A stretch of DNA of 64,000 nt. It comes from Caldithrix abyssi DSM 13497 (GTDB lineage: Bacteria > Calditrichota > Calditrichia > Calditrichales > Calditrichaceae). The notes beneath the pieces are model-generated. The model was not told the origin of the DNA and did no database searches. It was given only the letters and a program-made list of their open reading frames with translations. The stretch lies in contig NZ_CP018099.1 of assembly GCF_001886815.1 (NCBI RefSeq), positions 3,036,501 to 3,100,500 on the forward strand, given 5' to 3'. Below, piece by piece: positions 4,660 through 25,675 of this stretch (the first letter of the stretch is position 1; each line of letters begins with the position of its first letter). A program made the translations under genes and the position numbers.

Positions 4660-6138
4660 ATGATCAATCTCTCTCAAAACATTAAACTGAGTATGGAACA
4701 ACGGCTGACGCCGCAGCAGATTCTGCTTTCTACTTTACTGCAGTTACCGTTATTAAGCCTGGAACAACGCATTAAAAGCGAACTGGAAGTGAATCCCGTA
4801 CTGGAAGAAGGCGAAGAACAGGACGAAAATCCGGATGAAGAAGATATGATCGAAGAGCCAGATGATGATGAGATAGAAGAGATTTCCAAAGAACTGGAGC
4901 TTCTGGATCAACCTAAAAATAATGATGAATACGATAAAAAAGAATTAGAAGAAGCCCAGGCCGATGCGGATCTTGAAAATTATTTAAACGACGACGAATC
5001 GTTTGAAATTCGCATCCCCAGGGACAAAAACGAAGAAGAGTTTGAACGGCCCGAAATCCATCGTCCATCGCTTCCCGAGCACCTGATGGAACAACTTCAT
5101 ATGTTAGACCTTGACAATCGGCAACTGGCCATCGGCGAATATCTCATCTGGAACATTCGCGATGACGGCTATCTCGACGCCAGTTTAAATCTTGAAACCG
5201 TGGCCAATATGTTCGAGACCGATGTGCAAACGGTTGAAAAAATCTTAAAGAAAATTCAGTTCCTGGATCCTACCGGCGTGGGAAGCCGGGACCTTCGCGA
5301 ATGCCTGATGGTGCAATTGGAAGAACAGGGCAAGCAAGATACCATTGCCTACAAAATTTTAAAAGATCATTTTGACGATTTTAAAAACAAGCACTATGAA
5401 AAAATAATGGAAGCTTTGCATATCGATAAAGAAGAGCTGCAAAAGAATATTGATATTATCGTCAAACTGAATCCCAAGCCAGGCGAAGGCGAGTTTGATG
5501 CGCGCAGTAACTATATTGTGCCGGATTTTATTGTAGAAAAAATTGATGATAAACTGGTGGTTACGCTCAATGACTGGAACATCCCTCCCCTGCGCATCAG
5601 CAATCTTTACAAAAAGATGCTCATGGATCGCAAAAAATACGACAAGGAGACGCGCAAATACATCCGTAAAAAAGTAGAATCGGCCCGCTGGTTCATTACT
5701 TCTATCTGGCAGCGCAAAATCACCATGCTTAAGGTAATGGAAGCCATTGTGGAAAAACAACGCGAGTTTTTCGAAAAAGGGCCGGAATACATCAAGCCGC
5801 TGACCATGCGCGAAATCGCCGAAATGATCGATATGGACATCTCCACCGTCAGTCGTGTGGCCAACGGCAAATACGTGCAAACCGATTACGGTGTTTTTGA
5901 GCTGAAATACTTTTTTAATGAAAAGATTGAGACCGAAGACGGCGAAGAAATTTCCACGCGCCGTATTAAACAACGCATTCAGGAAATTATCGACGCCGAA
6001 GACAAACACAAACCGTTAAGCGATGAAAAAATCGCCGAAATATTGAAAAAAGAAGGGTTTCCCATTGCGCGTCGGACGGTCGCCAAATATCGGGAGCAAT
6101 TGCAAATACCGGTCGCCCGGTTGCGCAAAGAACTTTAA
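4660..6138 (+). CDS. rpoN: RNA polymerase sigma-54 factor
   Basis: 492 residues with the full sigma-54 architecture. Region I is Gln/Leu-rich (LSMEQRLTPQQILLSTLLQL). It is followed by an acidic linker at about 45-120, the core-binding region, the HTH (MREIAEMIDMDISTVSRVAN) and the C-terminal RpoN box ARRTVAKYREQ at 470-480, which recognises the -24 element. It directs transcription from -24/-12 promoters and needs AAA+ activators; one such activator is encoded at 24266-25675. Candidate target promoters in this window are upstream of the nap operon and of the DUF2202 gene. The start has a GGGAAGT box. The overlap of function with nearby genes is inference; the family assignment is firm. Confidence 0.97.
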   Translation: MINLSQNIKLSMEQRLTPQQILLSTLLQLPLLSLEQRIKSELEVNPVLEEGEEQDENPDEEDMIEEPDDDEIEEISKELELLDQPKNNDEYDKKELEEAQADADLENYLNDDESFEIRIPRDKNEEEFERPEIHRPSLPEHLMEQLHMLDLDNRQLAIGEYLIWNIRDDGYLDASLNLETVANMFETDVQTVEKILKKIQFLDPTGVGSRDLRECLMVQLEEQGKQDTIAYKILKDHFDDFKNKHYEKIMEALHIDKEELQKNIDIIVKLNPKPGEGEFDARSNYIVPDFIVEKIDDKLVVTLNDWNIPPLRISNLYKKMLMDRKKYDKETRKYIRKKVESARWFITSIWQRKITMLKVMEAIVEKQREFFEKGPEYIKPLTMREIAEMIDMDISTVSRVANGKYVQTDYGVFELKYFFNEKIETEDGEEISTRRIKQRIQEIIDAEDKHKPLSDEKIAEILKKEGFPIARRTVAKYREQLQIPVARLRKEL

Positions 6139-11818: not shown

Positions 11819-12406
11819 TCATTTTTTTACGCCTTCTTTCAGCTTAATTCCCGCCGCAAACAGAAGCGCCGCAAAAATCCCGGCCAGAACATGAAGCGCC
11901 AGAAAAAAGGCCATAACGGAAGTATCACCCCATTCGAAGCGTTTGAACAGACTTTCGTTCAATACCCACCGTTTAAATTTTACAAAATGAATCGAATTGC
12001 AAAAGAGTCCCTTTGTAAGCAATGGATGAAATGCCGAATACAGTTGCAGGCCAACGCCTACGGAAATGTCCGCCCGAAAATTAACGCCCAGTAAAACAAA
12101 CAGTGCTTCAGCCAGGGCGGCTTCGCACAGGATGGCAATAAACGGCCCCTCTACACTCATGCCAGCAAAAAAGAACTTCATTAAAGCAGCAATGACGCCC
12201 ATTAACAACACACTGCCCCGCATCGGTGCCAGACGTTTTGCAGAAATTAGGAGAAGAGCGACTATAAACGGCATCCAGATGCTAAATAATTCGGGCTGTA
12301 GTCCCTTTAAAATGCGGCTGCCGTAAAGTTCAACGATTCCCCACAGGATACCAATCGAAATAATTCGTGGAATCTGCTTTTCCAACGTAATTTTTTCTTT
12401 TTCCAT
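11819..12406 (-). CDS. Unknown integral membrane protein
   Basis: 195 residues with about five or six hydrophobic helices (for example IISIGILWGIVELYG, FSIWMPFIVALLLISA, GPFIAILCEAALAEALFVLL) and a positively charged C-terminus. I do not recognise the family; the overall look is of a small permease or transporter substrate-binding membrane subunit. It lies downstream of the nap operon on the same strand but behind a strong terminator, so co-expression is doubtful. It is tail-to-tail with the SlyD-like gene. Confidence 0.6.
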   Translation of the reverse strand: MEKEKITLEKQIPRIISIGILWGIVELYGSRILKGLQPELFSIWMPFIVALLLISAKRLAPMRGSVLLMGVIAALMKFFFAGMSVEGPFIAILCEAALAEALFVLLGVNFRADISVGVGLQLYSAFHPLLTKGLFCNSIHFVKFKRWVLNESLFKRFEWGDTSVMAFFLALHVLAGIFAALLFAAGIKLKEGVKK

Positions 12407-12415
12407 TTCAATTAT

Positions 12416-12453
12416 AACAAAAAGCGCCGCTCCCCTTTACAGTGGAGCGGCGC
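12416..12453 (-). terminator. Terminator of the nap operon
   Basis: A 10-bp perfect stem GCGCCGCTCC / GGAGCGGCGC with a 10-nt loop, followed on the minus strand by TTTTTG. It lies 17 bp after the stop of the octahaem cytochrome gene. Confidence 0.9.
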
Positions 12454-12469
12454 CCGAGGTTAGAAGGTT

Positions 12470-14086
12470 TTATCGGTTTTCAAAAAAGGATTTTCCGGGC
12501 AGGACAAGATCGATAACCTGCTCTTTCATCTTCTTCAGATCGTAATCGTTACGTTCTTTGTAAAAATTGAACGTAGAATCAACTGCCGGCGTATTTGCGA
12601 ACTTGGTACCCAGATAGTATTCTTTGTTTTTATAACGCTCTAACCATATCTGCCACTGTTCATCCGACAATAAGCCCTGCTGGTAAGCGGCTTCTACATT
12701 TTTGTACACACGATCCCAATAATCGGGATACTGATTGTAAACAAAGGGCGTTGTGTTTGATCTGGCATTTATACCCCATGCCTGGCCCGGAATATCATAC
12801 AGCGGATAGGTAATAAATTTGGCCGGGCTTTTAGATTTGGCGATCTTTTTAGCTTCAGGATCGCCGTGTTCGGCAGCCCATTTAATTAATTCAATCAACT
12901 TTTCCTGCACTTCCCAGATACCATGCCACTGCGTATAGTCCGCGCCCATCATCAAAGCGCCCATGCGGAAGCGACGGCCTTCGTGATGCCAGCCGTAATA
13001 CATTAAATATTCGGGTTCTTCATCCCAGCCATTTAACACCGGATCGGAATAAAATTTTCCATCCACTTCCAGACGGCTGATTTTACCTTCTTTGGTTAAC
13101 TTTTTAGTCCAGTACACAAATTGACGACGGATTTCATTGTACTGTAAATTAACCAGATCTGCGGTTAACAGGTACACTTTGTAAAAATCCGGCGAATGGC
13201 AACTGGCGCAGATCGCTTCCATACGTTCGCGTTTTTTCTGCCAGTTCCCCAGGTTTTCTTCATCCCATACCGTGCGGTAGCTCCAGGACATTTGCGATTC
13301 CCATGCCAGGCGTTCGCTTACATTATGCGTCATGGGTTGAGTTTCGTTGCCGTCCATGTGGCAGGTTGTACAAACCGGGGTTTCCAGTGGAATACGTTCG
13401 TTATTTTTACTGGAATAGTTCAAATCCATATGAGCTGACTTGGCTTTAAAAATATTGCCGTGTTTGGATTCCAGATAGATTTCGATTTGCGGGTGATCGG
13501 GACCCATGTGACATTCGCCGCAGGTTTCGGGTTGACGGGCAACCGCCTTGCTGTAAGAATGCTTGGCATGACAAACGTCGCACTCGCCAACGCTGCCATC
13601 GGGCCACAAATTGCCGATGTTATGGCATTGCTCGCACCCATGCCTGGTAGAAATCGGATTTTCAAAAACAGATCGATCGGCATTCTTAAGAATCCAGAAC
13701 TGATGGGCGTGCTTACTGTTGGCAAACTCTTCCACCTGTTGTTCATGGCATTTGGCGCAGTCTTTAGGTGTGGGATGTCTGCCCACTAAAATGCTGCTGC
13801 CCGTACAGGTAAAGGCGTCAAAATCATCTTTTTGCGCTTCGTGGCATTCATAGCAGCCCGTTCCGGAGACCGCGTGCATACTCTCCTTCCAGGCGTCAAT
13901 CTGATTTACAGCAATTCCTTTTTCTTCGTGACAGGTAATACATTTCGCCGACATTTCATCAATCTCTATTACAGGCTCAAAAGTACGGCTTTTTTTCATC
14001 TCCACGCCGGCAACAATTAACAGAGCAATAATTAATAAAACACTGAAAATTCCTATCAGCCATTGTTGGGCTTTAACAGTATCCAT
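12470..14086 (-). CDS. Membrane-anchored octahaem cytochrome c, HAO family
   Basis: 538 residues. A single uncleaved-looking helix (9-28) anchors a periplasmic domain with eight CXXCH motifs at Cys 49, 78, 110, 151, 169, 189, 239 and 293. This layout and the long haem-free C-terminal half (about 300-538) fit the hydroxylamine-oxidoreductase-like octahaem family. It is the last gene of the nap operon, directly after Rieske and cytochrome b genes. It most likely carries electrons from that quinol-oxidising module to periplasmic NapM/NapA, or itself reduces nitrite or hydroxylamine. Both are inference. A partial homologue lies at 1-922. No NapC or NapB is encoded nearby. Confidence 0.9.
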   Translation of the reverse strand: MDTVKAQQWLIGIFSVLLIIALLIVAGVEMKKSRTFEPVIEIDEMSAKCITCHEEKGIAVNQIDAWKESMHAVSGTGCYECHEAQKDDFDAFTCTGSSILVGRHPTPKDCAKCHEQQVEEFANSKHAHQFWILKNADRSVFENPISTRHGCEQCHNIGNLWPDGSVGECDVCHAKHSYSKAVARQPETCGECHMGPDHPQIEIYLESKHGNIFKAKSAHMDLNYSSKNNERIPLETPVCTTCHMDGNETQPMTHNVSERLAWESQMSWSYRTVWDEENLGNWQKKRERMEAICASCHSPDFYKVYLLTADLVNLQYNEIRRQFVYWTKKLTKEGKISRLEVDGKFYSDPVLNGWDEEPEYLMYYGWHHEGRRFRMGALMMGADYTQWHGIWEVQEKLIELIKWAAEHGDPEAKKIAKSKSPAKFITYPLYDIPGQAWGINARSNTTPFVYNQYPDYWDRVYKNVEAAYQQGLLSDEQWQIWLERYKNKEYYLGTKFANTPAVDSTFNFYKERNDYDLKKMKEQVIDLVLPGKSFFENR

Positions 14087-14104
14087 ACATCCTCCTAATT
14101 TTAT

Positions 14105-15151
14105 TTAAATAACAATTGTTTCCCAGATGGTTAAAATTAAAGTAATAACCAGCGTCAATACGCCGGCCGTACGGCTAAAAATGGTTCGCTTGGTTTTATC
14201 TTTAGAAATAAGCGGTTCGATAAACGGCCAGAACGTAAAGACTAAAACGAAAGCCGCCGTGGCGTAAATGCCCACATGCAATGGCACCATTTTCAAAAAT
14301 CTGTAAGTAGGGAAAAAGTACCATTCCGGTTTAATATGTTGCGGCGTAATGGCCGGATTGGCCGGTTCTCCGATTCCCGGCGGTAAAATAACCGTTAATG
14401 TGCTCATTAACGTTAAAAGAAAGAGCGTGGCAATGATGATTTTGTAAAAATGATGCGGATAAAATGGATAATATTTTTCTTCAAACCCCTCGGGAATGGA
14501 AACACCGTGCAAGCGTAAGATCACAATGTGCAGAAAAATAAAAAAGAAAATAATTCCTGGCAGGATCATTACATGCAAGGTGTAAAAACGAGTTAGGGTA
14601 TTGGCATTTACCACATCGCCACCGCGCAGAAAAAAGAGCATCATATCGCCGATCAGCGGGACTTCTTTAATCATATTAGTACCCACGGTGGTTGCCCAGT
14701 AAGAGAGCTGGTTGTAAGTTAAAGAATATCCGGTAAACGAAATGGTCATGGTTAAAAAGAACAATAGTACGCCTATGATCCAGTTCAATTCCCTTGGTTT
14801 GCGATAGGCCTGCGTAAAAAATACGCGCGTCATGTGCAACAGTAATGAAATAATCATTAAATTTGCTCCCCATCTGTGCATGCCGCGCACCCAATACCCA
14901 AAACGCACATCTTCGGTAATATGCCGGATGCTTTCATAGGCCATCTCTGGCGAAGGCATAAAATAGAAGGTTAAAAACAGGCCTGTTAGCACCTGGAACC
15001 CAAATAAAATCAACGGAGTGGCGCCCATGACAAACAGCCACTTCTTCATGTGCGTGGGAATGGGTTCTTTAATAAATATTTTTTCGTTAAACTCGACAAA
15101 CTTATCGTAGTCGATCGGGAAGCGTTCTAAAAACCATTCTTTGAATTTCAT
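14105..15151 (-). CDS. Cytochrome b of a Rieske/cytochrome b complex
   Basis: 348 residues, a single-chain cytochrome b. The haem ligands His92/His106 and His193/His208 have classical spacing. The quinol-site motif PEWYF is at 275-279. It should oxidise menaquinol together with the Rieske protein encoded just upstream. Its ATG overlaps the Rieske stop codon in an ATGA arrangement, with GGAG 8 nt before it; an upstream in-frame GTG at 15157 is less likely. The placement inside a nap operon suggests that it replaces NapC as the quinol-oxidising entry point. Confidence 0.93.
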   Translation of the reverse strand: MKFKEWFLERFPIDYDKFVEFNEKIFIKEPIPTHMKKWLFVMGATPLILFGFQVLTGLFLTFYFMPSPEMAYESIRHITEDVRFGYWVRGMHRWGANLMIISLLLHMTRVFFTQAYRKPRELNWIIGVLLFFLTMTISFTGYSLTYNQLSYWATTVGTNMIKEVPLIGDMMLFFLRGGDVVNANTLTRFYTLHVMILPGIIFFFIFLHIVILRLHGVSIPEGFEEKYYPFYPHHFYKIIIATLFLLTLMSTLTVILPPGIGEPANPAITPQHIKPEWYFFPTYRFLKMVPLHVGIYATAAFVLVFTFWPFIEPLISKDKTKRTIFSRTAGVLTLVITLILTIWETIVI

Positions 15152-15612
15152 ACCCACGGACTCCTCACTTTATCTTCCACATAAACATAAATTTTTTGGT
15201 CTTCAACAACGACCTTAAATTCATCCAGAGGTCGCGGCGGAGGGCCCCCGATAACATTCCCTAATTTGTCGAATATACCATTATGACAGGGGCAAAAAAA
15301 GCGGTTTTTATCCTGCTCCCATTTAATGATACAGCCCAGATGGGTACAAATACCAGACATGACTTTGAACTGGCCGTCATGCGGCACCACATAAACCGGA
15401 GTTTTCCCCAGACTGATTTGTTTGGGACGCCCATCCTTGAACTCCCGCTCATGAGCCACCAGGTATTTGTGGTAGGTTTTTTCCTTCTTTTCCGGGAAAA
15501 TGTAAAGAATCAGGTTTCGGAAAAACAGAGCGATGCTTGCGCCTAAAGCCGCGAAGACGCCGCTCTTAAAGAAAAATTCTCGCCGATTGATTTTTTTATC
15601 CTCTTCGGCCAT
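15148..15612 (-). CDS. Rieske 2Fe-2S protein
   Basis: 154 residues starting at the ATG at 15612, which overlaps the napH stop (TAATG) and follows AAGGAGG. Earlier in-frame starts would lie inside napH. An RRE-F-type N-terminus (NRREFFFKSG) and one hydrophobic helix (about 17-39) fit a Tat-inserted membrane anchor. The cluster ligands are in CTHLGC (89-94) and CPCHNG (107-112). It also has the GPPPRPL segment common in bc-type Rieske proteins. It partners the cytochrome b encoded next. Confidence 0.95.
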   Translation of the reverse strand: MAEEDKKINRREFFFKSGVFAALGASIALFFRNLILYIFPEKKEKTYHKYLVAHEREFKDGRPKQISLGKTPVYVVPHDGQFKVMSGICTHLGCIIKWEQDKNRFFCPCHNGIFDKLGNVIGGPPPRPLDEFKVVVEDQKIYVYVEDKVRSPWV

Positions 15613-16487
15613 TACATTTCCTCCTTCTTTATTGGTTCTTCTTTTCTTAATTGGTAGCGAGGCGTAAGGTTGGCAGTTAGATTCATGAAATTCATTTTTA
15701 ATGCCTCTCCGTAAAAATAGCATTCTTTTACACATTCGCCACAGTTAAAACAGGAAGGATAGATTTTATTGGATTTCGGATTGATATGGATTGGACAGCG
15801 CATGACACAGGGCGACTCCGTTTCGTTCATACTGCACACGCAATCCATTTCCGAATAGCTGACTATTAATCCTTTTTTGTAATGAAAACGTTGCAGCAGG
15901 GCGCCAACCGGACACAGTTCCCGGCACCAGATGCGATTGAAAACGACCACATCAAGCGCCAGCAATACGACAATAATTAACGACTCCGTGCCCACCATTT
16001 TCAAAAAGATTAAATCGCTGAAAAAAACGCCTATTTGTCCGGGCATGGAAACAAAATACAGAATGGGGAATCCGGCCAGCGCCGCCAGAATGAGCCAGCC
16101 GACCAAAATGCCCCAATAGCGTCGGGAATGCACAGGATAAACTCTGCCCTTTCCGGGGAAGATTTTTCGCAACCACTCGGCCAGTAAATTGTAGGGGCAA
16201 ATGAAACTGCAAAAAATCTTACCCGCAAAAAAGGCGATACCCACCGGAATGATGAGCCCCAATAGTAGCGTACGGTTAAGGCTCAATGTTAATAAAAAGT
16301 CCTGCAAAGCAAACAACGGATCGACAAATTCAATCTTCCAGATGCGCAGGCTGTAATAATTACCGGTGACGAATGTGATTTTCAAAACATTTAAGATCGG
16401 AATCATCACCAAAAAAGCCAATGACAAAACTTGAATCACCCGCCGTTTACGAAAAAGAAAGGACAGCACCTTCTGTTTTCCGTTCAC
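15612..16487 (-). CDS. napH: NapH-like membrane polyferredoxin
   Basis: 291 residues with about four or five helices. The two cytoplasmic CX3CP motifs of NapH are visible (CSFICPYN and CRELCPVG). Two 4Fe-4S motifs follow at the C-terminus: CSMNETESPCVMRCP, which is atypical, and CFNCGECVKECY. NapH with NapG forms a quinol dehydrogenase that feeds periplasmic nitrate reductase. The start overlaps the napG stop by 4 bp (ATGA). Confidence 0.9.
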   Translation of the reverse strand: MNGKQKVLSFLFRKRRVIQVLSLAFLVMIPILNVLKITFVTGNYYSLRIWKIEFVDPLFALQDFLLTLSLNRTLLLGLIIPVGIAFFAGKIFCSFICPYNLLAEWLRKIFPGKGRVYPVHSRRYWGILVGWLILAALAGFPILYFVSMPGQIGVFFSDLIFLKMVGTESLIIVVLLALDVVVFNRIWCRELCPVGALLQRFHYKKGLIVSYSEMDCVCSMNETESPCVMRCPIHINPKSNKIYPSCFNCGECVKECYFYGEALKMNFMNLTANLTPRYQLRKEEPIKKEEM

Positions 16488-16990
16488 TTTGACGCATTCC
16501 TTTTTATTACAACGATAGACGGTTCTTCATTGGGGCAGACGTTTTCGCAAATTCCGCATCCCACGCACTTCTCCTCCACCACCACCGGATAAATCTCATC
16601 TTTTAAAATAATGGCTTCCGTGTAAATGGGGCATCGTTCGTAACAGGCCCGACAGATAATGCCCATGTAAGGTAAACAGGTCTCCTGGTCAATTTTTGCA
16701 ATGCCCATTTGCACCTGCTCTTTTTTCAGAATGGGTTGCAGGGCATCGGTCGGGCATTCGGGCGGACATATCATACACAGATAACAGGGAATATCGCGGG
16801 GAATGATAACCGGCGTCCCTGAGTTTTTCCCAAGGCCCTTTTTAATCACTTTGATACTCTTATAGGGGCACACCTCCACACAGCGTCGGCATCGAATGCA
16901 GTGTTTTAAAAAAAGCTCTTCATCCAGCGCCCCGGGCGGTCTTAGCGGTTCCCGATAATTCGCAATTTTTTCCAGAATTTCCTTAAGCAT
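16484..16990 (-). CDS. napG: NapG-like ferredoxin with four 4Fe-4S clusters
   Basis: 168 residues with four cluster motifs: CIRCRRCVEVCP, CYLCMICPPECP, CLPYMGIICRACYERCP and CVGCGICENVCP. The sequence is homologous to NapG but lacks a Tat signal at the N-terminus (MLKEILEKIANYREPL), so it may stay cytoplasmic or be exported with a partner. It overlaps napD by 8 bp and napH by 4 bp, which indicates tight translational coupling. Confidence 0.85.
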   Translation of the reverse strand: MLKEILEKIANYREPLRPPGALDEELFLKHCIRCRRCVEVCPYKSIKVIKKGLGKNSGTPVIIPRDIPCYLCMICPPECPTDALQPILKKEQVQMGIAKIDQETCLPYMGIICRACYERCPIYTEAIILKDEIYPVVVEEKCVGCGICENVCPNEEPSIVVIKRNASK

Positions 16991-17252
16991 CTTTCTGATC
17001 TATTTCAATTTCAGACACTTCATCTTCAAAATTAACGTAAGCCGGATATATCCCTAAAATAGCCGGATCGTTATTTTGAACTTCCTCTAAATAGGCTTTT
17101 AAATTGGTTTGGGGCGTGGTTTCTATCACTGCAACAATATAATGCCCTTCATGGATGCCATAGGTGGTTATCTCAGGCAGTTGCTCCAGGCGCTGATAGA
17201 CCTTTTGCACTTCTTCTTTTTTGGTTAAAATAGCTACTCCTGCAATTGCCAA
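16983..17252 (-). CDS. napD: NapD-like chaperone of NapA
   Basis: 89 residues, the usual NapD size and ferredoxin-like fold pattern: IAGVAILTKKEEVQKVYQRL, TYGIHEGHYIVAVIE and PAILGIYPAYVNFEDE. NapD binds the Tat signal of NapA and guides its maturation. The start is a TTG: an in-frame TGA lies just upstream and AAAGGAAG precedes the TTG at the right distance. It begins 12 bp after the preceding ferredoxin gene. Confidence 0.9.
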   Translation of the reverse strand: MAIAGVAILTKKEEVQKVYQRLEQLPEITTYGIHEGHYIVAVIETTPQTNLKAYLEEVQNNDPAILGIYPAYVNFEDEVSEIEIDQKDA

Positions 17253-17264
17253 AACCGCTTCCTT

Positions 17265-17819
17265 TCATGTTTTAGGTTTAATCTCAATGGCCGGTTGTTC
17301 TGCCGGACATTGGTACTCGCAGATGCCGCAACCGGTACAAATTTCTTCGTTTACCACCGGCCGCCCGGAGGCATTAACCGAAATCGCTTCATTGGCCAGC
17401 GGGCAGGCGTTAACGCAAGCGCGGCAGAACAGGCCGCTGTAAGCCAGGCAAAGATTTTTATTGATCCGGGCCACGCCATTTAACTTTTGGGCAAACGCTC
17501 TTTGCAACGCCCCCGGTTGACAGGCAGAGATGCAGGGATAGTCCGAACACATAAAACAGGGTTGTTCAGATGGCACAATGATCGGCTTTCCGAAAAAGTC
17601 GTTTTCTGGGTCACGACACACACGCAACGCTTCATGGGGACAAACCGATACACATTCGTAACATTCTGTACAGGTCTGTAAAAACTGTTTTTCTGAAGCC
17701 ACGCCAGGCGGTAGAAGGACAAATGATCCTTTCGTATTCGCAGCCTGTGAAATTTCGCGAAATATTGCGGCGAAATTCTTCAAAAATGATTTTCTGCTTA
17801 TTCTCTCCGTCCTGGCCAT
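17265..17819 (-). CDS. Second four-cluster ferredoxin of the nap operon
   Basis: 184 residues with four 4Fe-4S motifs: CTECYECVSVCP, CFMCSDYPCISAC, CLAYSGLFCRACVNACP and CTGCGICEYQCP. It is a paralogue of the NapG-like protein at 16484-16990. The N-terminus contains SRKSFLK, close to a Tat consensus with Lys for the second Arg, but no hydrophobic stretch follows. It may be a NapF-like cytoplasmic protein or a NapG that has lost export. It is separated from napA by a 92-bp gap holding a terminator-like hairpin. Confidence 0.85.
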   Translation of the reverse strand: MARTERISRKSFLKNFAAIFREISQAANTKGSFVLLPPGVASEKQFLQTCTECYECVSVCPHEALRVCRDPENDFFGKPIIVPSEQPCFMCSDYPCISACQPGALQRAFAQKLNGVARINKNLCLAYSGLFCRACVNACPLANEAISVNASGRPVVNEEICTGCGICEYQCPAEQPAIEIKPKT

Positions 17820-17840
17820 TTAAAAACTCCATTTTCGTTT

Positions 17841-17897
17841 AAAAAAGGGAACTGTCTCTAAGGTCGCCATGCAACCGCCATTTTGAGACAGTCCCTT
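17841..17897 (-). terminator. Terminator-like hairpin between napA and the ferredoxin genes
   Basis: The arms AAGGGA-CTGTCTC and GAGACAG-TTCCCTT (one bulged base) pair around a 26-nt loop and are followed on the minus strand by six T residues. It could partly terminate transcription or protect the napA 3' end. Confidence 0.65.
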
Positions 17898-17911
17898 AAC
17901 CTTTTAAGGAA

Positions 17912-20185
17912 TTAAGCTTTTTTAATCCGAGCAGCGCATACTTTGTATTCCGGTTCTTTTGATCCTGGATCAAAGGCGTCTATGGTTAACACATTAGCCA
18001 TCCACTCTTCCCAGTGCCAGGGGATAAAGAGCGTGCCTTTTTCCGGGCGGTTAATCACGCGCGCTTCTATTTTCAACTTTCCGCGGCGTGTTTCAACGAT
18101 TACCTGATCCTTGTTGGCAATGCCCAGCGCCTTTGCGTCTTCCGGATTGATTTCCACGTATGCTTTTGGCACCGCACGATTCAGTTCAGGAACCGTTCCG
18201 GTCATGGTGTTTGTGTGCCAGTGTTCCAGAACCCGTCCGGTAGTTAGCGCAAAGGGATATTGGTCATCGGTCGGCTCTTCAGGGCCTTTGTCAGGGCGCG
18301 CCCAGATAACCGCCTTACCTTCCGGTTTGCCGTAAAAGTAGATCCAGCGTCCTTTTTTCTTTTCTGCAGGCAATTCATCGAAAATGGGATCGCCTTTGAC
18401 GTAACGTTTGTACGTGCCCGGATGATCTTCCGAAGGAACAGGCCAGCGTAAACCGCGCACTTCTTTTAAGCGACGATAGGTAGCGCCGCTTAAATCCATA
18501 TCACGTCCTTTGGTCAGAGTTAGATATTCGTTCCAGATGTCCTCGGCTGTTTGGTATTTTTCGAATTCTTTCTTAAAGCCCATGCGTATGCCCAGATCAC
18601 GCAAAATAAAGGCGTCCCATCTGGCCTCGCCCATGGGTTCAATCACTTTGGGCATGTACTGCGATCTTCTTTCGGTACAGCCGTAAACGCCTTCTTTTTC
18701 CGCCCAGAAAGCCGCCGGCAACACCACATCGGCATATTGGGTTGTGGCCGTGGGAAAGAAGGACTCAGCCACCACCACAAACTGCTCTTTTAACCCTTTC
18801 CAGTATTTACTGGCATTGGGCAGCGATTGGGCCGGATTGGTACACATGATGTAAATACCTTTAATTTTGCCCTCGTTCAAGGCGGTGAACATGGCAATGG
18901 TGTGCTTACCCGGTTTTGGTTGAATATTCTTAACCGGAACGCCCCACACTTTGGCCACTTCTTCGCGATGTTTCGCATTGGCTACTTTGCGATGGCCAGG
19001 TAACAAATGGCACAAACCGCCGCCTTCGCGCACGCCGCCACAGGCGTTGGGCTGGCCGGTTAAAGAAAACGTATCGCTACCTGGCTTACCAATCTTTCCG
19101 GTGAGCAGATGTAGGTTAGTAATCAAATTATTGGCCCATACGCCGCGCGTACGCTGGTTAATTCCCATGGTCCACATGCTCATGGCCGTTTTAGCCTGCC
19201 CGAACAGGCGAGCCGCTTTTACAATGTCTTCCGCTGGCACACCGCTTATTTTAGAGGCATATTCTGGCGTATATTTTTCCAGGAATTGTTTGTACTGCTC
19301 AAAGGTCATGTTCTTTTTGTCATTACCTTTAATGACTACATTATCTTTAATGAATTGTTCGTCTGCATAACCTTCTTTGATGATAATTCTGGCCATGGCA
19401 TGCAAAATGGCGAGATCCCAGCCCGGCTTGGGGAAAAGATGAAGGTCTGCCACCTGATCGGTAGGCGTTGTTCTGGGATCGATAATCACGATTTTTACAT
19501 TGGGATTTTTCGCTTTGTGACGCACAATCCGCTCAAAAAGTATGGGATGGGCCTCTGCCGTATTGGAGCCGATCAGCAAAAACAACTCTGCTTTCTCAAT
19601 ATCATCATAGGTGCCGGAAGGTTCATCCAGGCCCAACGATGTTAAATATCCTCCGACGGCGCTGGCCATACACAGGCGCGGGTTACCTTCCATATTATTG
19701 GTTCCTATGCAGCCTTTAAATAGCTTATTGGCCATGTAGGTCTCTTCGGTTTCTGCCTGACCGGAACCGTAAAAGGCCAGGGCATCCGGGCCGTGTTGCT
19801 TGCGTATTTCATTGAATTTTTTGGCCACATAATCCAGCGCTTCGTCCCAGCTAACTTTTTCGAATTTGCCGTTCTTTTTGATCATGGGATGGGTAAGACG
19901 GGTTTTGGAGTAAATAACTTTATGCAGATAAAACCCTTTTATGCAAAGGTGCCCTTTGTTAATGGTGTTGAATTTGTCGCCTCTAACGGCCACCACTTTA
20001 CCATTTTTTACGCCCACCATAACGCCGCATCCAACGCCACAAAAACGACACACCGATTTATGCCATTGCATGCCGCTATCCGCAAATAGCGGTTTAATAC
20101 CGCCGGGTAAAAGGGCTGTACCAATACTGGCGGCAGCAGCTGCCGCAGCGCTGGTTTTTATAAATTCTCTTCGGGTTACGCCCAT
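17912..20185 (-). CDS. napA: Periplasmic nitrate reductase catalytic subunit
   Basis: 757 residues from the ATG at 20185, which follows GGAGG. The GTG at 20209 and ATG at 20197 are less likely because the second overlaps that box. A Tat signal (TRREFIK at 4-10, then an Ala-rich stretch) directs export. The 4Fe-4S ligands are Cys46, 49, 53 and 81, with Lys83 placed for electron transfer to the molybdopterin. Cys172 (NPRLCMASAVGGY) is the likely Mo ligand. It reduces nitrate to nitrite in the periplasm with a bis-MGD cofactor. The size and motifs resemble monomeric NapA of the Desulfovibrio type. NapB is absent; the tetrahaem protein upstream is the probable donor. Confidence 0.95.
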   Translation of the reverse strand: MGVTRREFIKTSAAAAAAASIGTALLPGGIKPLFADSGMQWHKSVCRFCGVGCGVMVGVKNGKVVAVRGDKFNTINKGHLCIKGFYLHKVIYSKTRLTHPMIKKNGKFEKVSWDEALDYVAKKFNEIRKQHGPDALAFYGSGQAETEETYMANKLFKGCIGTNNMEGNPRLCMASAVGGYLTSLGLDEPSGTYDDIEKAELFLLIGSNTAEAHPILFERIVRHKAKNPNVKIVIIDPRTTPTDQVADLHLFPKPGWDLAILHAMARIIIKEGYADEQFIKDNVVIKGNDKKNMTFEQYKQFLEKYTPEYASKISGVPAEDIVKAARLFGQAKTAMSMWTMGINQRTRGVWANNLITNLHLLTGKIGKPGSDTFSLTGQPNACGGVREGGGLCHLLPGHRKVANAKHREEVAKVWGVPVKNIQPKPGKHTIAMFTALNEGKIKGIYIMCTNPAQSLPNASKYWKGLKEQFVVVAESFFPTATTQYADVVLPAAFWAEKEGVYGCTERRSQYMPKVIEPMGEARWDAFILRDLGIRMGFKKEFEKYQTAEDIWNEYLTLTKGRDMDLSGATYRRLKEVRGLRWPVPSEDHPGTYKRYVKGDPIFDELPAEKKKGRWIYFYGKPEGKAVIWARPDKGPEEPTDDQYPFALTTGRVLEHWHTNTMTGTVPELNRAVPKAYVEINPEDAKALGIANKDQVIVETRRGKLKIEARVINRPEKGTLFIPWHWEEWMANVLTIDAFDPGSKEPEYKVCAARIKKA

Positions 20186-20212
20186 TTTTTCCTCCATTGT
20201 TGTAATCACTGA

Positions 20213-20587
20213 CTATTGATGAAATTTTAAAGTATGTCCCTGATGGCAGGTAAAGCATTGTAAATTGCCGCCTTTAGAGGCGTCAACCGGACTGCCCGTG
20301 TGGCAGCTTAAGCAGCCCTCCGTATCCGGTTTGGCTTTAAACTCCACCTGGCCATCGCCATGACACATATAACAACCAAAATTCATCATCCCATGTTTTG
20401 AGCTCTTCCATTCGGCAACAATCTCAGGCGTTACTTCCTCATGGCACTCCGTACAGGAAATCGAATAATCCAACTCCGGATGTTTTTGCCCCTGGGCCTT
20501 GCCATCGCCCGCCTGGATTTGCCAGGCTGACAGCACAAAGACTCCCAGCGCCAAAGCCAAAAGTATTTTACCTAACTTATTGTTCAT
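20213..20587 (-). CDS. Tetrahaem cytochrome c, NapM-like
   Basis: About 124 residues with a Sec signal (LGKILLALALGVFVLSAWQIQA) and four CXXCH motifs: CTECH, CYMCH, CLSCH and CFTCH. It is immediately upstream of napA. Desulfovibrio-type nap operons carry a small tetrahaem NapM at this place, so NapM is the most likely identity and direct electron donation to NapA the most likely role. The second of two adjacent ATGs is preferred from the GGGGAG spacing. Confidence 0.85.
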   Translation of the reverse strand: MNNKLGKILLALALGVFVLSAWQIQAGDGKAQGQKHPELDYSISCTECHEEVTPEIVAEWKSSKHGMMNFGCYMCHGDGQVEFKAKPDTEGCLSCHTGSPVDASKGGNLQCFTCHQGHTLKFHQ

Positions 20588-20617
20588 CATTCACTCCCCT
20601 TTTTGTTAGTGGAAAAG

Positions 20618-20635
20618 GGGGCTATAAATAGCCCC
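20618..20635 (-). terminator. Hairpin between the porin and tetrahaem cytochrome genes
   Basis: Perfect stem GGGGCTA / TAGCCCC with a 4-nt loop, directly after the porin stop. The following CTTTTCC is a weak T-run, so processing or partial termination are both possible. Confidence 0.5.
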
Positions 20636-20640
20636 GTTTT

Positions 20641-22104
20641 TTAAAATTTGTAAGTAATGGTCGATTTGAGTTCCCAAACAGGATCCGTAAAATCATCGTT
20701 GCCGTTGATCAAATAGCCGGCGGCCGTTCCTGGTATAAAATAACCACCGCGAATGGTAAAATCCAGTTCATCGTAAATTTTGTAACTGCAGCGGAAATCT
20801 ACTTCCTGCCCAAGATCATTGGCCGATTTGTTCTGATCGATAATCCAGTCCCCATTGTCGTCGCCCCTCCATGCATGAACCGGCTGGGTGGAGCGGATAT
20901 AGCTGTAAGAAACAAAGGTGGTCAGTTTTTTCACGGGTTTATAAGTGGCGTTAACCTGAACAATAGTGGTATTCTCCAGCTCACGATAGGCGCGTACATT
21001 GGGCGCGCCCAGTCCCTGAGGCGTAATGCCTTCTTCATCGGGCATAATGGAATCTTCCCAGATTTCGGTAATGTAGAAGAAACCGGACGTGCGCAGTTTG
21101 TTAACATTGCCCTTACCGCCGCTTAAATCATCGTCGCCAGAACCCATTCCTACAACACCGCCCAGAGATAATTTGTCGGTGGTGGCGTGGGTCATCTTCA
21201 AATAAAGGTTGTAACCGCTCAAATCGCCGTTATTTTTATCCCACATTTGTTTGGCGCCGTAAATGTCGTTTTTGATGTCGTCTTTACCCATTAAATAATC
21301 CGCCTCAAAATCCGCGGTAACTTTACCTTTTTTGATGGTTCCGGAAATACCAACAGCGGTCAATTGCGTAATTTGCGGTGAAAAACGTGTTTTGAAAAAT
21401 TGCAGATGATCGGGCACGTAGGCGTTCATATCCGAAACACTGGCATCATTGTAATACAAACCGTACACATTATAATTAATACATTTAAACTCATTGTTCA
21501 AGTTTAATGTAAAAAGATGAGCGTCGCGGCCATCCGTGAAACCGCGTGAATCCTGAGCCAACACCTCTTTATCGCTAATTCCGTCAACGCCTTCCGATAC
21601 TTTAGCCCAGCTTAAGGTAAGTTTTTTGCCTACCACATTTTTTACATCCAGCTGAACGCCGTCGTAGTTATTGTCAACCATGAGCTTATTACCCAAACCA
21701 TACCACATGCGCCCGACACGAAAAGTTAGTGGCTTTTGCGGTAAATCGAACTCAATGTAAGCCTGATCAACATGGAAGAGAAAATTGGTATCTTTAAAAT
21801 CGAACAAGGCACTTCCCCCGGCCGTACCTGTTCTTTGTACACTGCGTAAAGCATTGTCAACGCCCCACCAGCCCTGGGCCATATCAAAACGCGTAATAAG
21901 ACGTAAATTATCGTTTACGGCAGCCTGTACTTTAAACCGAAGCATTTGTACAACATAGTTATCATTGTACTTGATTTTACCGAGCAAAAAATTATGCTGA
22001 GACTGTCCCCAGGCGGTGTAAACGCCATTTACTTTAAAATCCGCTGAAAAAAGCAATCCTACCATTAAGAAGATTGTTAGAATTAAAAGTGTAAAACGTT
22101 TCAT
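20641..22104 (-). CDS. Outer-membrane beta-barrel protein leading the nap operon
   Basis: 487 residues with signal peptide MKRFTLLILTIFLMVGLLFSA and a long series of amphipathic strands ending in KSTITYKF, the usual aromatic C-terminus of outer-membrane barrels. Segments such as VDQAYIEFDLPQKPLTFRVGRMWYG resemble alginate-export-type porins. It is the first gene behind the -24/-12 promoter and so is probably induced together with NapA. A role in nitrate or nitrite passage across the outer membrane is inference. Confidence 0.75.
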   Translation of the reverse strand: MKRFTLLILTIFLMVGLLFSADFKVNGVYTAWGQSQHNFLLGKIKYNDNYVVQMLRFKVQAAVNDNLRLITRFDMAQGWWGVDNALRSVQRTGTAGGSALFDFKDTNFLFHVDQAYIEFDLPQKPLTFRVGRMWYGLGNKLMVDNNYDGVQLDVKNVVGKKLTLSWAKVSEGVDGISDKEVLAQDSRGFTDGRDAHLFTLNLNNEFKCINYNVYGLYYNDASVSDMNAYVPDHLQFFKTRFSPQITQLTAVGISGTIKKGKVTADFEADYLMGKDDIKNDIYGAKQMWDKNNGDLSGYNLYLKMTHATTDKLSLGGVVGMGSGDDDLSGGKGNVNKLRTSGFFYITEIWEDSIMPDEEGITPQGLGAPNVRAYRELENTTIVQVNATYKPVKKLTTFVSYSYIRSTQPVHAWRGDDNGDWIIDQNKSANDLGQEVDFRCSYKIYDELDFTIRGGYFIPGTAAGYLINGNDDFTDPVWELKSTITYKF

Positions 22105-22164: not shown

Positions 22165-22180
22165 GACAAATTACGTGCCA
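22165..22180 (-). promoter_or_regulatory. Sigma-54 -24/-12 promoter of the nap operon
   Basis: Read on the minus strand, TGGCACGTAATTTGTC matches TGGCACG-N4-TTGC with a single T for C at -12. Spacing between the GG and the -12 element is exact. The predicted start near 22154 gives a leader of about 50 nt with GGAGG before the porin ATG. The NtrC-type activator gene lies next door. Confidence 0.7.
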
Positions 22181-22291: not shown

Positions 22292-22355
22292 CTGTGCGGA
22301 AAAATATTTGAATTATTTAAAAAATAAACTCAAATTATTTATGGAGGAAAAACAC

Positions 22356-24251
22356 ATGAACCTGACACGCAAAATCATTTTAATTATCGGTTTAACTACA
22401 ACTCTGTTTTTATCTGTTATTTTTAGCGTGTTAACTCTTCGTTATAATAAGCAAATAGAGAACACTCTTTTAAACAACGCCCGGACGCTCTACCGAATGG
22501 TCGTCGCCGTTCGAAGCTGGGCGTCCGAATATGAAGGTGTGCTGGTCAAAAAAAAGGAAAATACGCAGATTAATCCCTTTTTAGCCCATCCGATATTATT
22601 AACGCAAAACGGAGATACACTTGTTTTAAAAAATCCAGCGTTAATTACCCGCGAATTGAGCGAAATGAGCAAACATTTTCTGGGCGACGCTTCCTTTCAC
22701 ATGTCCAGTAAAAAATACATTAATCCGGCGAATAAACCGGATGATTTTGAATTAAACGCCCTTAACTTTTTAGAAACCCAAAAAGAGCAAAAAGAATTTT
22801 TTACGTTTGAAACAAAAAACAACAAACTCTATTTCCGTTACTTTGCTCCCCTTTACACTAAAAAGTCGTGTCTGAGCTGCCATTCAGAGCAGGGCTACCA
22901 TGAAGGCGACCTGCGCGGAGGGATCAGTATTCTGCTCTCTGCCGATTATTACCAGAAGGCGCGAGCGGATAATTTAAAGTTTATGATCTTTTCATCCTTT
23001 ATTTCCATCATTATTCTGTCCGTTATTCTCTATTTAGGATTGCGTAAGACGATTATCCGCCCCATCGAAGGGTTAACGGAGGCTGCAGAACGCATAGAAA
23101 CCCAGGATTACCAGTTCACCCTACAGCCCTTTTCGCACGGAAGTCTGGAAATTCAAAAGCTTTTTAAAACTTTCGAGCGTATGCGCCAGTCCATCTCCTC
23201 CTATTTAACGGATTTGCAGCTTTCAGAAAAAAAATATCGCTCGCTCATCGAAAATTCTCTGGAAGCAATCGCCATCGGCAACCAACACGGCGAAATCATC
23301 GAAACCAATAAGCGCTTTCATCAATTGTTCAATAACAGTAAGGTCAGTTTTAAAGGATTGCGTATTTCAGACCTGATTGATAAAAAGTCTATTAAGCCGT
23401 TGACCGACACCTCTGATTTACCCAGAGACACAAAACATTACGAAGCCAATATCATTTTAGATAAGGATAACCGAATTCCGGTAGAAGTTTTTGAGATCAG
23501 CAACATCAAACTAACCCAGGAAAAAACCATCAGCTTTTTTTACCTGAGAGATTTGCGCCTGCGAAAAAAACTGGAAACCTACAGCTTGCAGATGGAAAAA
23601 ATGCTGGTATTAGGCGAATTGTCGGCCGGGATTGCCCACGAGCTACGCAACCCGCTTTTTGCCATTTCCAATAATCTTGATTATTTACGCGATCGGCTAT
23701 CAGATCACAAAGATTTTACAGAAATTTATCCTGAACTGCTGGAAAGTCTGAATAAAATTCATAAAATCGTTTCGGCCATTCTGGATTATGCCACTCCCCA
23801 TCTTCCGGAACTCAAGCGTATCGATCTGATTCAGGTTATCGATCAGTGCCTTATTCTGGTGCGCAAGAAATTTGAAAAAGCGCATATTAAAATAAAACAG
23901 GAGTTCGTTGGCGATTGTTTTACAGTGAAAGCCGACCCGCATCAGATCGAACAGGTTTTCGTTAATCTAATCATGAATGCATTTAAAGCGATGGACGAAC
24001 ATGGCGAATTAACCATCCGCGGCGTGTGTAAAAACGGTCGTACCGAGATTGCCATTATAGACAACGGTTGCGGTATTCCGCCCCAGGATATGGACCGCAT
24101 ATTCGATCCGTTCTACACGCAATTTGATTCCGGCACCGGCCTGGGGCTTTCGATTGTTCAAAAAATATTGACGCAACACAAGATCAAATATAAAGTGAAT
24201 AGTAAAGTTGGAAAAGGAACAAGCTTTATCTTATATTTTAAAAGAGCATAA
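22356..24251 (+). CDS. Sensor histidine kinase with periplasmic c-haem (DUF3365/Tll0287-like) domain
   Basis: 631 residues from the ATG at 22356, chosen because GGAGG lies 8 nt upstream; the frame itself is open from 22308. TM1 spans about 7-28. The periplasmic domain (about 30-205) carries FRYFAPLYTKKSCLSCHSEQ, whose CLSCH at 172-176 is a c-type haem motif typical of DUF3365 sensors. TM2 spans 209-229, then come HAMP (about 231-283) and PAS (about 294-400). The H-box has His428 (IAHELRNPL) and the ATPase has DNGCGIPP and GTGLGLSIV. It probably senses redox state or NO-type ligands and phosphorylates the response regulator encoded 14 bp downstream. Confidence 0.92.
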   Translation: MNLTRKIILIIGLTTTLFLSVIFSVLTLRYNKQIENTLLNNARTLYRMVVAVRSWASEYEGVLVKKKENTQINPFLAHPILLTQNGDTLVLKNPALITRELSEMSKHFLGDASFHMSSKKYINPANKPDDFELNALNFLETQKEQKEFFTFETKNNKLYFRYFAPLYTKKSCLSCHSEQGYHEGDLRGGISILLSADYYQKARADNLKFMIFSSFISIIILSVILYLGLRKTIIRPIEGLTEAAERIETQDYQFTLQPFSHGSLEIQKLFKTFERMRQSISSYLTDLQLSEKKYRSLIENSLEAIAIGNQHGEIIETNKRFHQLFNNSKVSFKGLRISDLIDKKSIKPLTDTSDLPRDTKHYEANIILDKDNRIPVEVFEISNIKLTQEKTISFFYLRDLRLRKKLETYSLQMEKMLVLGELSAGIAHELRNPLFAISNNLDYLRDRLSDHKDFTEIYPELLESLNKIHKIVSAILDYATPHLPELKRIDLIQVIDQCLILVRKKFEKAHIKIKQEFVGDCFTVKADPHQIEQVFVNLIMNAFKAMDEHGELTIRGVCKNGRTEIAIIDNGCGIPPQDMDRIFDPFYTQFDSGTGLGLSIVQKILTQHKIKYKVNSKVGKGTSFILYFKRA

Positions 24252-24265
24252 CTTCGGAGAAATCA

Positions 24266-25675
24266 ATGAAATTTCAGATACACATTGTGGATGACGAGCA
24301 TACGGTAGCGCAATCTTTAAAAAGAATTTTAACCACCTCTGAACGCGAAATAGAGGTTTCAAACTCCGGTTACGAAGCGCTAAAAAAAACGGAAACAAAA
24401 TCCTTTGACTTATTCATCCTTGATTACCGGCTGGGCGATATGGATGGCATTCAATTACTGGAACATTTGAAAAATACGAGCGCCGACGCCATCTATATTT
24501 TTATTACTGCCTTTGGCAATGTGGAAACGGCCGTGCGAGCCATGAAGGCCGGCGCGTTTGATTTCATCCAGAAGGACCAGAATCCGGAGGTTATTCGCTT
24601 TACCGTTCAAAGAGCGCTGGATACCATCCGTTTGCGCAAAGAGGTGGAGCTTTTGAAAAACTCTATCTTTCAGGAAAGAGGCCCCAGAAAAATGGTGGCA
24701 GAATCGCCGGTAATGAAAGAAATCTTGCAAATAGCCGAAAAGTACGCCCAGACCGATTGCACCATATTGATTACCGGAGAGACCGGAACCGGTAAAAATG
24801 TGCTGGCGGAGTTCATCCATTACCAGAGCAACCGCTTTAACAATCCCTTTTTAGCCATCAATTGCTGCACCATTCCGGCTAATTTAATGGAAAGTGAATT
24901 GTTTGGTTACGAAAAAGGCGCCTTTACCGGGGCGCACACCAACGGAAAAGTCGGACTGATTGAACGAGCCAATGAAGGCACCTTATTTCTGGATGAAATC
25001 GGCGAACTTACGCCCGACCTGCAGGCCAAATTGCTCTACATCATCGAGCGGCAGGAATTTTTGCGCATCGGCTCGGTGGAACCTCAAAAAGTAAATACGC
25101 GCATTATCGCGGCCACCAATGTGGACCTGGAAAAAATGATCGAAGAGAAGAATTTTCGTAGCGACCTGTATTATCGCTTAAACGTGGCCTCCATCAAACT
25201 GCCGCCCCTGCGAGAACGAAAGGAAGACATTTTACCTCTCAGCAAACTTTTTATTGAAGAATTCAACAAACGCTTTAATAAAAATGTAAAACAAATCGCC
25301 GATGACGCGGCAGACTACCTGATCAACGCCCCCTGGAAAGGCAATATCCGGGAACTCAAAAACTTACTGGAACGCGTCATGATTTTAACCGAAGAAGAGA
25401 CGCTAAGCTTTCGGGAACTACAAAAAGCGTTTACCCCTTTTAGCAACGACCACTCGCCGGAAAAGAACGCGTTTTTTTCCTTGCACTTAAATCCATCGAA
25501 AGGAACCAATTTGCTGCAGGAAAGCCAGAAACAGCTGGTCATCCAGGCATTAAAGAAATGCAATTGCAATCGCAGTTCGGCAGCCAGAATGCTGGGCATT
25601 CCGCGCACCACACTAAATTTTTATTTAAAGAAATTTGATCTGCAATCTGAGGAGCCGGCGTTAAAAAACAGTTAA
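24266..25675 (+). CDS. NtrC-family sigma-54-dependent response regulator
   Basis: 469 residues. The receiver domain (1-120) has Asp53 as phosphoacceptor and Lys103 (IQKDQ). The AAA+ domain has Walker A GETGTGKN (171-178), the sigma-54-contacting GAFTGA loop (218-223) and Walker B TLFLDE (239-244). A Fis-type HTH ends the protein (NRSSAARMLGIPRTTLNFYL). It is paired with the haem-type kinase and divergent from the nap operon, whose promoter is of the -24/-12 type, so it is the likely nap activator. Its last 4 bp overlap tail-to-tail with nanE. Confidence 0.95.
   Translation: MKFQIHIVDDEHTVAQSLKRILTTSEREIEVSNSGYEALKKTETKSFDLFILDYRLGDMDGIQLLEHLKNTSADAIYIFITAFGNVETAVRAMKAGAFDFIQKDQNPEVIRFTVQRALDTIRLRKEVELLKNSIFQERGPRKMVAESPVMKEILQIAEKYAQTDCTILITGETGTGKNVLAEFIHYQSNRFNNPFLAINCCTIPANLMESELFGYEKGAFTGAHTNGKVGLIERANEGTLFLDEIGELTPDLQAKLLYIIERQEFLRIGSVEPQKVNTRIIAATNVDLEKMIEEKNFRSDLYYRLNVASIKLPPLRERKEDILPLSKLFIEEFNKRFNKNVKQIADDAADYLINAPWKGNIRELKNLLERVMILTEEETLSFRELQKAFTPFSNDHSPEKNAFFSLHLNPSKGTNLLQESQKQLVIQALKKCNCNRSSAARMLGIPRTTLNFYLKKFDLQSEEPALKNS

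What the first reader, a model, noticed from the sequence alone, without database searches (positions are those of the whole stretch)
12470..22104. nap operon with Rieske, cytochrome b and an HAO-type octahaem cytochrome in place of NapC/NapB
NapA, NapD, two NapG-like ferredoxins, NapH and a NapM-like cytochrome are followed by a full Rieske/cytochrome b pair and a membrane-anchored octahaem cytochrome, ending at one strong terminator. This suggests menaquinol oxidation by a bc-type complex with an octahaem outlet to NapA. Anammox bacteria also have Rieske/cytochrome b gene sets with HAO-like proteins, so a shared module is possible. It could couple nitrate reduction to extra proton translocation.
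Basis: partly seen in the sequence, partly recalled or inferred. Interest (0 to 1): 0.78.

Follow-up and report, generated by a model that had tools for sequence, protein, structure and literature searches.

The report
Nitrate-to-ammonia operon with quinol-driven octahaem reductase
A gene set for turning nitrate into ammonia carries a respiratory (Rieske/cytochrome b) complex joined to an eight-haem enzyme; this locus is already published, and comparison across many phyla suggests the eight-haem protein is the nitrite-reducing enzyme rather than a wire to the nitrate reductase.

Summary
Size, gene order and count match Caldithrix abyssi Cabys_2564-2556, published in 2017 (PMC5317091) with the OCC as the nitrite reductase 'eHao'. 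Across about 98 related loci the OCC is the constant part and its quinol-oxidising partner changes: Rieske/cyt b, NapC/NrfH-type or NrfCD-type. Rieske-cytb-OCC also occurs without nap, including Nitrospira moscoviensis, whose OCC is a published nitrite reductase. In 40 Calditrichota genomes OCC and NrfA never co-occur. The OCC has the HAO fold, keeps the active-site Asp-His pair and lacks the HAO cross-link Tyr. Best explanation: an electrogenic menaquinol:nitrite reductase in which OCC replaces cytochrome c1, consuming the nitrite that NapA makes; a branch to NapM/NapA is not excluded. Extra here: the N-terminal anchor tracks the Rieske/cyt b partner (36/37 vs 4/23) and the Rieske looks low-potential.

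The parts
20641..22104 (-). porin-like outer-membrane protein, first gene of the unit
   Evidence: NF033939 E=4e-20, PF13372 E=4e-10; conserved at the head of the operon in relatives
20213..20590 (-). napM: exported tetrahaem cytochrome c
   Evidence: 4 CxxCH, PF14537; = Cabys_2564 by order
17912..20209 (-). napA: periplasmic nitrate reductase, Mo-bisMGD, TAT signal
   Evidence: NF010055 E=4e-217
17265..17819 (-). napG-like ferredoxin 1
   Evidence: NF007012 E=2e-35; TAT export of Cabys_2562 reported in PMC5317091
16983..17252 (-). napD chaperone
   Evidence: PF03927 E=5.5e-8
16484..16990 (-). napG/napF-like ferredoxin 2, no export signal seen
   Evidence: NF007012 E=5e-42, napF E=1.5e-17
15612..16487 (-). 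napH membrane ferredoxin
   Evidence: TIGR02163 E=9e-29
15148..15612 (-). Rieske [2Fe-2S] protein; CTHLGC...CPCHNGIFD, lacking the potential-raising Ser and Tyr
   Evidence: PF00355 E=2e-17; motif; start after AAGGAGG
14105..15157 (-). cytochrome b (b6 + subunit IV in one chain, PEWY), the only PF00032 hit in the genome
   Evidence: PF00033 E=6e-53
12470..14086 (-). OCC: membrane-anchored octahaem cytochrome c of the HAO superfamily, proposed nitrite reductase
   Evidence: 8 CxxCH; AF2 model pLDDT 89.6; PDB fold matches Z 22-29 to HAO family
12420..12455 (-). intrinsic terminator directly after OCC
   Evidence: GCGCCGCTCC...GGAGCGGCGCTTTTTG; -28.2 kcal/mol, z=-5.2
22165..22180 (-). candidate sigma-54 (-24/-12) element TGGCACGTAATTTGTC, about 64 nt before the porin start
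   Evidence: scores 13/16; a match, mostly weak, at 50-66 nt before the porin start in 9 of 11 related operons; consensus match, not proof
22308..24251 (+). divergent histidine kinase with a haem-type Tll0287-like sensor domain
   Evidence: PF11845 E=2e-20, HATPase; homologues beside the operon in relatives
24266..25675 (+). sigma-54-dependent response regulator
   Evidence: PF00158 E=6e-68

Best explanation
A nitrate-ammonification operon. NapGH/NapM (donor route inferred) reduce NapA, which makes nitrite from nitrate in the periplasm. The Rieske/cyt b pair oxidises menaquinol by a Q cycle and passes the high-potential electrons to the octahaem cytochrome, which sits in the place of cytochrome c1/f, held by its own N-terminal helix, and reduces nitrite (likely to ammonium) at its five-coordinate haem. 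The nitrite step would then conserve energy, unlike NrfHA. Shown here: gene content, synteny, fold, haem-ligand and active-site conservation, partner swapping, exclusion with NrfA. Inferred: the reaction and its product, direct docking, Q cycle, electron route.
For: (1) HAO fold: Z 29.1 over 352 residues to 4qo5 and 22-25 to HAO, HAOr and HDH; Asp197-His198 invariant in 91 of 91 sequences, as are seven further non-CxxCH His. (2) The HAO cross-link Tyr467 is absent: the column aligned with it is Gln/His/Trp/Asn, never Tyr, as in reductive octahaem proteins. (3) Partner swapping: OCC with Rieske/cyt b (37 loci with a full OCC), or with PF03264 NapC/NrfH-type or NrfCD modules (23 loci); the last two are the known kinds of donor of the nitrite reductase NrfA. 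(4) Rieske-cytb-OCC without nap in the locus: L080, L081, L084-L086, L090, L091, L117; L090 is N. moscoviensis, where an ONR with its upstream Rieske/cyt b genes is the proposed assimilatory nitrite reductase, with expression support (PMC6606698, PMC12342949). (5) 24 of 40 Calditrichota genomes have this OCC, 6 have NrfA, none both (hypergeometric p about 0.002, not corrected for kinship); within one genus, G019 has nap + NrfA and G020 nap + OCC. 44 of 50 further OCC genomes lack NrfA. (6) Anchor helix in 36 of 37 Rieske/cyt b-linked OCCs against 4 of 23 others. (7) Menaquinone pathway genes present.
Against: No OCC of this clade has been assayed, as far as the papers read tell. Nap genes do lie next to many OCCs, and OCC distances follow NapA as closely as cyt b (partial r 0.44 vs 0.41), so co-evolution does not separate the two readings. 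Anchor/partner agreement is 3 of 3 in phylogenetically independent pairs, too few for significance. The genome also has an eHao-like octahaem elsewhere (L038) that could be the ammonifying enzyme. C. jejuni shows that a Rieske/cyt b complex can feed Nap (PMC6195509). The G020 OCC has a cleavable signal and its neighbouring Rieske/cyt b belongs to a different module.
Confidence: 0.72

Rival explanations
1. One reading: the octahaem is an electron-transfer subunit only, carrying electrons from Rieske/cyt b to NapM and NapA in place of NapC/NapB, making nitrate reduction electrogenic.
For: Same operon and strict synteny; Qcr-dependent Nap in C. jejuni with dihaem QcrC (PMC6195509); Rieske-cytb-OCC directly before napA in L076, L077, L088, L089, L094, L097, L116.
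Against: Intact HAO-type active-site residues; the same module without nap; OCC with NapC/NrfH/NrfCD partners; exclusion with NrfA; napMADGH is found without QcrABC in the nitrate-reducing Deferribacter autotrophicus (PMC6896113).
Confidence: 0.1
2. Dual role: Rieske/cyt b-OCC both reduces nitrite itself and passes electrons through NapM to NapA, so both steps are fed by the Q cycle.
For: Proposed in part by Kublanov et al. (PMC5317091: Rieske/cyt b donating to NapM and/or eHao); multihaem chains conduct to several partners; napA next to OCC in unrelated lineages.
Against: No direct evidence of an OCC-NapM contact; NapGH is present and can serve NapA.
Confidence: 0.13
3. OCC removes toxic NO or hydroxylamine (or makes NO from nitrite), and the real ammonifying enzyme is the other octahaem (L038, 417 aa).
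For: L038 is HAO/eHao-like and lies beside Rrf2-type, hemerythrin-like and PAS-domain genes (named by eye; fit to HAO chains), a nitrosative-stress setting; HAOr makes NO from nitrite (PMC12485887).
Against: Exclusion with NrfA concerns the nap-linked OCC family; Nitrospira ONR expression follows ammonium need (PMC6606698, PMC12342949).
Confidence: 0.05

Closest known systems
Caldithrix abyssi Nap/eHao cluster Cabys_2564-2556 (Kublanov et al. 2017, PMC5317091)
   Same: Same nine genes in the same order and the same relative genome position; the window is almost certainly this locus
   Different: The paper names the OCC a periplasmic nitrite reductase and says NapC is lacking; here it looks membrane-anchored, belongs to a wide Rieske-cytb-OCC family, and one PF03264 protein exists elsewhere in the genome
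Nitrospira ONR with petBC (N. moscoviensis; PMC6606698, PMC12342949)
   Same: Rieske-cytb-OCC in the same order, anchored OCC; in some Nitrospirales a NapC replaces petBC
   Different: OCC about 34% identical and in another branch of the tree; no nap; assimilatory; Rieske CTDLGC and cyt b PPWY
Kuenenia R/b-3 complex kuste4569-4574 (PMC12954380, PMC12485887)
   Same: b6-type Rieske/cyt b with an HAO-like octahaem proposed to reduce nitrite
   Different: Split cyt b, extra multihaem subunit, NAD(P) oxidoreductase, Rieske at +303 mV with Ser and Tyr
Epsilonproteobacterial eHao (literature) and Ignicoccus OCC 4qo5
   Same: HAO superfamily, eight haems; no cross-link Tyr (eHao by the literature)
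   Different: No Rieske/cyt b gene partner reported for them in the papers read; 4qo5 has Asp-Val where OCC has Asp-His
QcrABC-NapAB electron route of Campylobacter jejuni (PMC6195509)
   Same: Rieske/cyt b complex supporting periplasmic nitrate respiration, electrogenic
   Different: Dihaem QcrC, no octahaem enzyme in the complex

Membership tests
HAO superfamily of octahaem cytochromes | HAO fold with eight covalent haems | tested here: met
   8 CxxCH; Z 22-29 to HAO, HAOr, HDH and 4qo5 over 306-352 residues
Hydroxylamine oxidoreductase (oxidative, P460) | cross-linking Tyr (Tyr467 in N. europaea) | tested here: not met
   Aligned column is Q58/H18/W14/N1 in 91 OCCs, never Tyr (two-step alignment)
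ONR/NrfA type nitrite reductase | CxxCK at the active-site haem | tested here: not met
   No CxxCK flagged in any relative examined; all eight motifs are CxxCH in the window protein
eHao-type Tyr-less reductive octahaem nitrite reductase | nitrite/hydroxylamine reduction activity | not testable with these tools
   Only fold, residues and gene context were tested
Rieske/cytochrome b (bc/b6f) complexes | Rieske cluster ligands, four haem-b His, PEWY | tested here: met
   CTHLGC/CPCH; His spacing 13 and 14; PEWY
Rieske/cytochrome b (bc/b6f) complexes | cytochrome c1 or f gene | tested here: not met
   No mono-haem c gene in the unit; the OCC takes that place
NapMADGH nitrate reductase system | napM, napA, napD, napG, napH and no napB/napC | tested here: met
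Anammox R/b complexes | Rieske with Ser and Tyr, NAD(P) oxidoreductase subunit | tested here: not met
   CPCHNGIFD in the window Rieske; no such subunit gene in the unit

The most novel reading that the evidence does not exclude
A widespread but unnamed membrane complex in at least a dozen phyla: an HAO-family octahaem has replaced cytochrome c1/f as the anchored c-subunit of a low-potential, menaquinol-type Rieske/cytochrome b complex, giving an electrogenic quinol:nitrite (ammonifying) reductase that substitutes for NrfHA.
Probability: 0.5. Interest if true: 0.62.

Novelty: already known. Interest (0 to 1): 0.4.

Why it matters
Ammonification by NrfHA does not itself pump protons. A Q-cycle-linked nitrite reductase would make the nitrite step of nitrate ammonification energy-conserving, and genome surveys that count nrfA alone would miss its carriers. 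The module gives a clear protein set for a biochemical test.

Tried and rejected
Octahaem as NapC/NapB substitute: rejected as the main role for the reasons above. True ONR/NrfA membership: rejected (no CxxCK; fold match only Z about 10). Close kinship with the anammox complex: rejected on Rieske residues and missing subunits. Distance-matrix test of OCC with cyt b versus NapA: done, does not discriminate. I first counted L057 (G020) as an OCC-linked Rieske/cyt b; L113 carries a homologous Rieske/cytb/multihaem set apart from its own OCC set, and sister G019 has a cyt b of the same length on another contig than its nap genes, so I dropped it from the argument. It is still counted as the one exception in the 36/37 figure. 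First AlphaFold run on a shallow alignment was useless (pLDDT 51) and was replaced. The built-in terminator scan did not list the terminator after OCC, probably because its loop exceeds 8 nt. PHROGs gave no match.
Full report
IDENTITY. The window lies at G000:C1:3036501-3100500 of a complete 4.98 Mb genome. The unit porin-napM-napA-napG1-napD-napG2-napH-Rieske-cytb-OCC matches, from napM on, the nine genes Cabys_2564 to 2556 of Caldithrix abyssi, and the published text describes this very cluster (PMC5317091): no NapB or NapC, NapM, Rieske/cyt b inside the nap cluster, and an adjacent octahaem called eHao and proposed to reduce nitrite.

THE GENES. Families; spacing (overlaps or short gaps throughout; the largest, 92 nt, follows napA). 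A strong terminator follows the OCC directly. A sigma-54-like site stands about 64 nt before the porin, with mostly weak matches at similar distances (50-66 nt) in most related operons, and a divergent pair of haem-type sensor kinase and sigma-54 activator lies upstream with homologues beside several related operons. The site is a consensus match only.

THE OCTAHAEM. Eight CxxCH, one N-terminal helix without an obvious cleavage site, and a roughly 110-residue C-terminal extension found in its own clade. Sequence and fold place it in the HAO superfamily, nearest the Ignicoccus octahaem 4qo5, then HAO, HAOr and HDH; NrfA and ONR are at Z about 10. In 91 relatives Asp197, His198 and all eight proximal His are invariant, with seven further His (71, 126, 176, 209, 254, 367, 368) invariant and His388 nearly so: enough for seven bis-His haems and one open haem. 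The column aligned with the HAO cross-link Tyr is never Tyr; this rests on a two-step alignment (OCC to 4qo5 and to L038 by the shared PDY..W.G motif, L038 to 1fgj).

WHO IT KEEPS COMPANY WITH. In Calditrichota the full unit is syntenic in six further contigs. A scan of 84,980 species' genomes kept 80 loci of over 570. Rieske-cytb-OCC in that order recurs in Calditrichota, KSB1, Kryptonia, Marinimicrobia, Ignavibacteria, Bacteroidota, Chlorobiota, Planctomycetota, Nitrospirota, Nitrospinota, Acidobacteriota, Myxococcota, Spirochaetota, Omnitrophota and Thermodesulfobacteriota; many are MAGs, so single phylum calls are provisional. napA is next to some of these and not to others. Other OCCs lack Rieske/cyt b and pair with 5-haem NapC-like, NrfH-like (PF03264 E=9e-58) or NrfC/NrfD-like (PF03916 E=5e-39, 1e-42) genes. 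The donor changes at least four times on the tree. The OCC is the constant part, which is what one expects of the enzyme and not of a wire to NapA. For about a third of the loci no donor was recognised.

EXCLUSION WITH NrfA. In 40 Calditrichota genomes 24 carry this OCC (E below 1e-30), six carry NrfA (E below 1e-150), none both. The NrfA carriers are mostly one family, so the p of 0.002 overstates independence; the within-genus contrast G019/G020 (same nap, 91% NapA) is one independent event.

ANCHOR AND RIESKE. 36 of 37 OCCs with Rieske/cyt b have an anchor by a simple hydropathy rule, 4 of 23 with other donors, and those four show AxA cleavage sites by eye. The exception, L057, sits by a different Rieske/cyt b module. 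With phylogeny taken into account only three independent pairs exist, all concordant. The window Rieske reads CPCHNGIFD: Ser and Tyr positions are Gly and Phe. In yeast, loss of these costs about 130 and 65 mV (as cited in PMC12954380), so a low-potential, menaquinol-type Rieske is predicted; menaquinone genes are present, and this is the genome's only PF00032 cytochrome b.

VERDICT. The breadth, partner swapping, anchor correlation and NrfA exclusion were not found stated together in the papers read, but the Nitrospira work already reports partner exchange on a small scale.

Noticed in passing
L090:8358-8801 and L080, L081, L085 (Nitrospira): The Rieske protein beside the Nitrospira ONR reads CTDLGC in all four loci: the first cluster His ligand is Asp, and cyt b has PPWY in place of PEWY. 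PF00355 still matches (E=9e-11). An unusual cluster ligand set.
   Followed up: partly
window 2-922 (-), continuing left as L037:9417-10922: A second octahaem cytochrome (501 aa, PF13447) next to a beta-barrel-like gene, 11.5 kb from the nap unit.
   Followed up: partly
L038:7512-8765 (-) (G000:C1 about 2.64 Mb): A third, eHao-like octahaem (417 aa) next to Rrf2-type regulator, hemerythrin-like and PAS-domain genes (named by eye); it may be a better match to eHao proper than Cabys_2556.
   Followed up: partly
L039:5165-6667 (+) (G000:C1 about 2.137 Mb): A 500-aa, 6-haem NapC/NirT-domain membrane protein (PF03264, 44 bits), alone; the published statement that C. abyssi lacks NapC needs this qualification.
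   Followed up: partly
window 4660-6138 (+): An ORF that looks like sigma-54 (RpoN) by eye, fitting the sigma-54-type activator beside the nap unit; not run against a library.
   Followed up: no
L066, L067, L068, L073: Close relatives of the window OCC with signal peptides, no Rieske/cyt b found, and a following small exported gene of similar size (SurA_N-like in L065, where Rieske/cyt b is present).
   Followed up: partly
window 12473-12797 (OCC residues about 430-538): C-terminal extension seen only in the window OCC's clade, modelled with mostly high confidence; no clear fold match, role unknown.
   Followed up: no
L057:10721-13577; L113:1973 onwards: Another Rieske/cyt b set with a multihaem cytochrome with a C-terminal hydrophobic segment (443 aa), separate from the OCC module.
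   Followed up: partly
window 11819-12406 (-): 195-aa membrane protein after the terminator, no Pfam hit, conserved beside the operon in several relatives.
   Followed up: no
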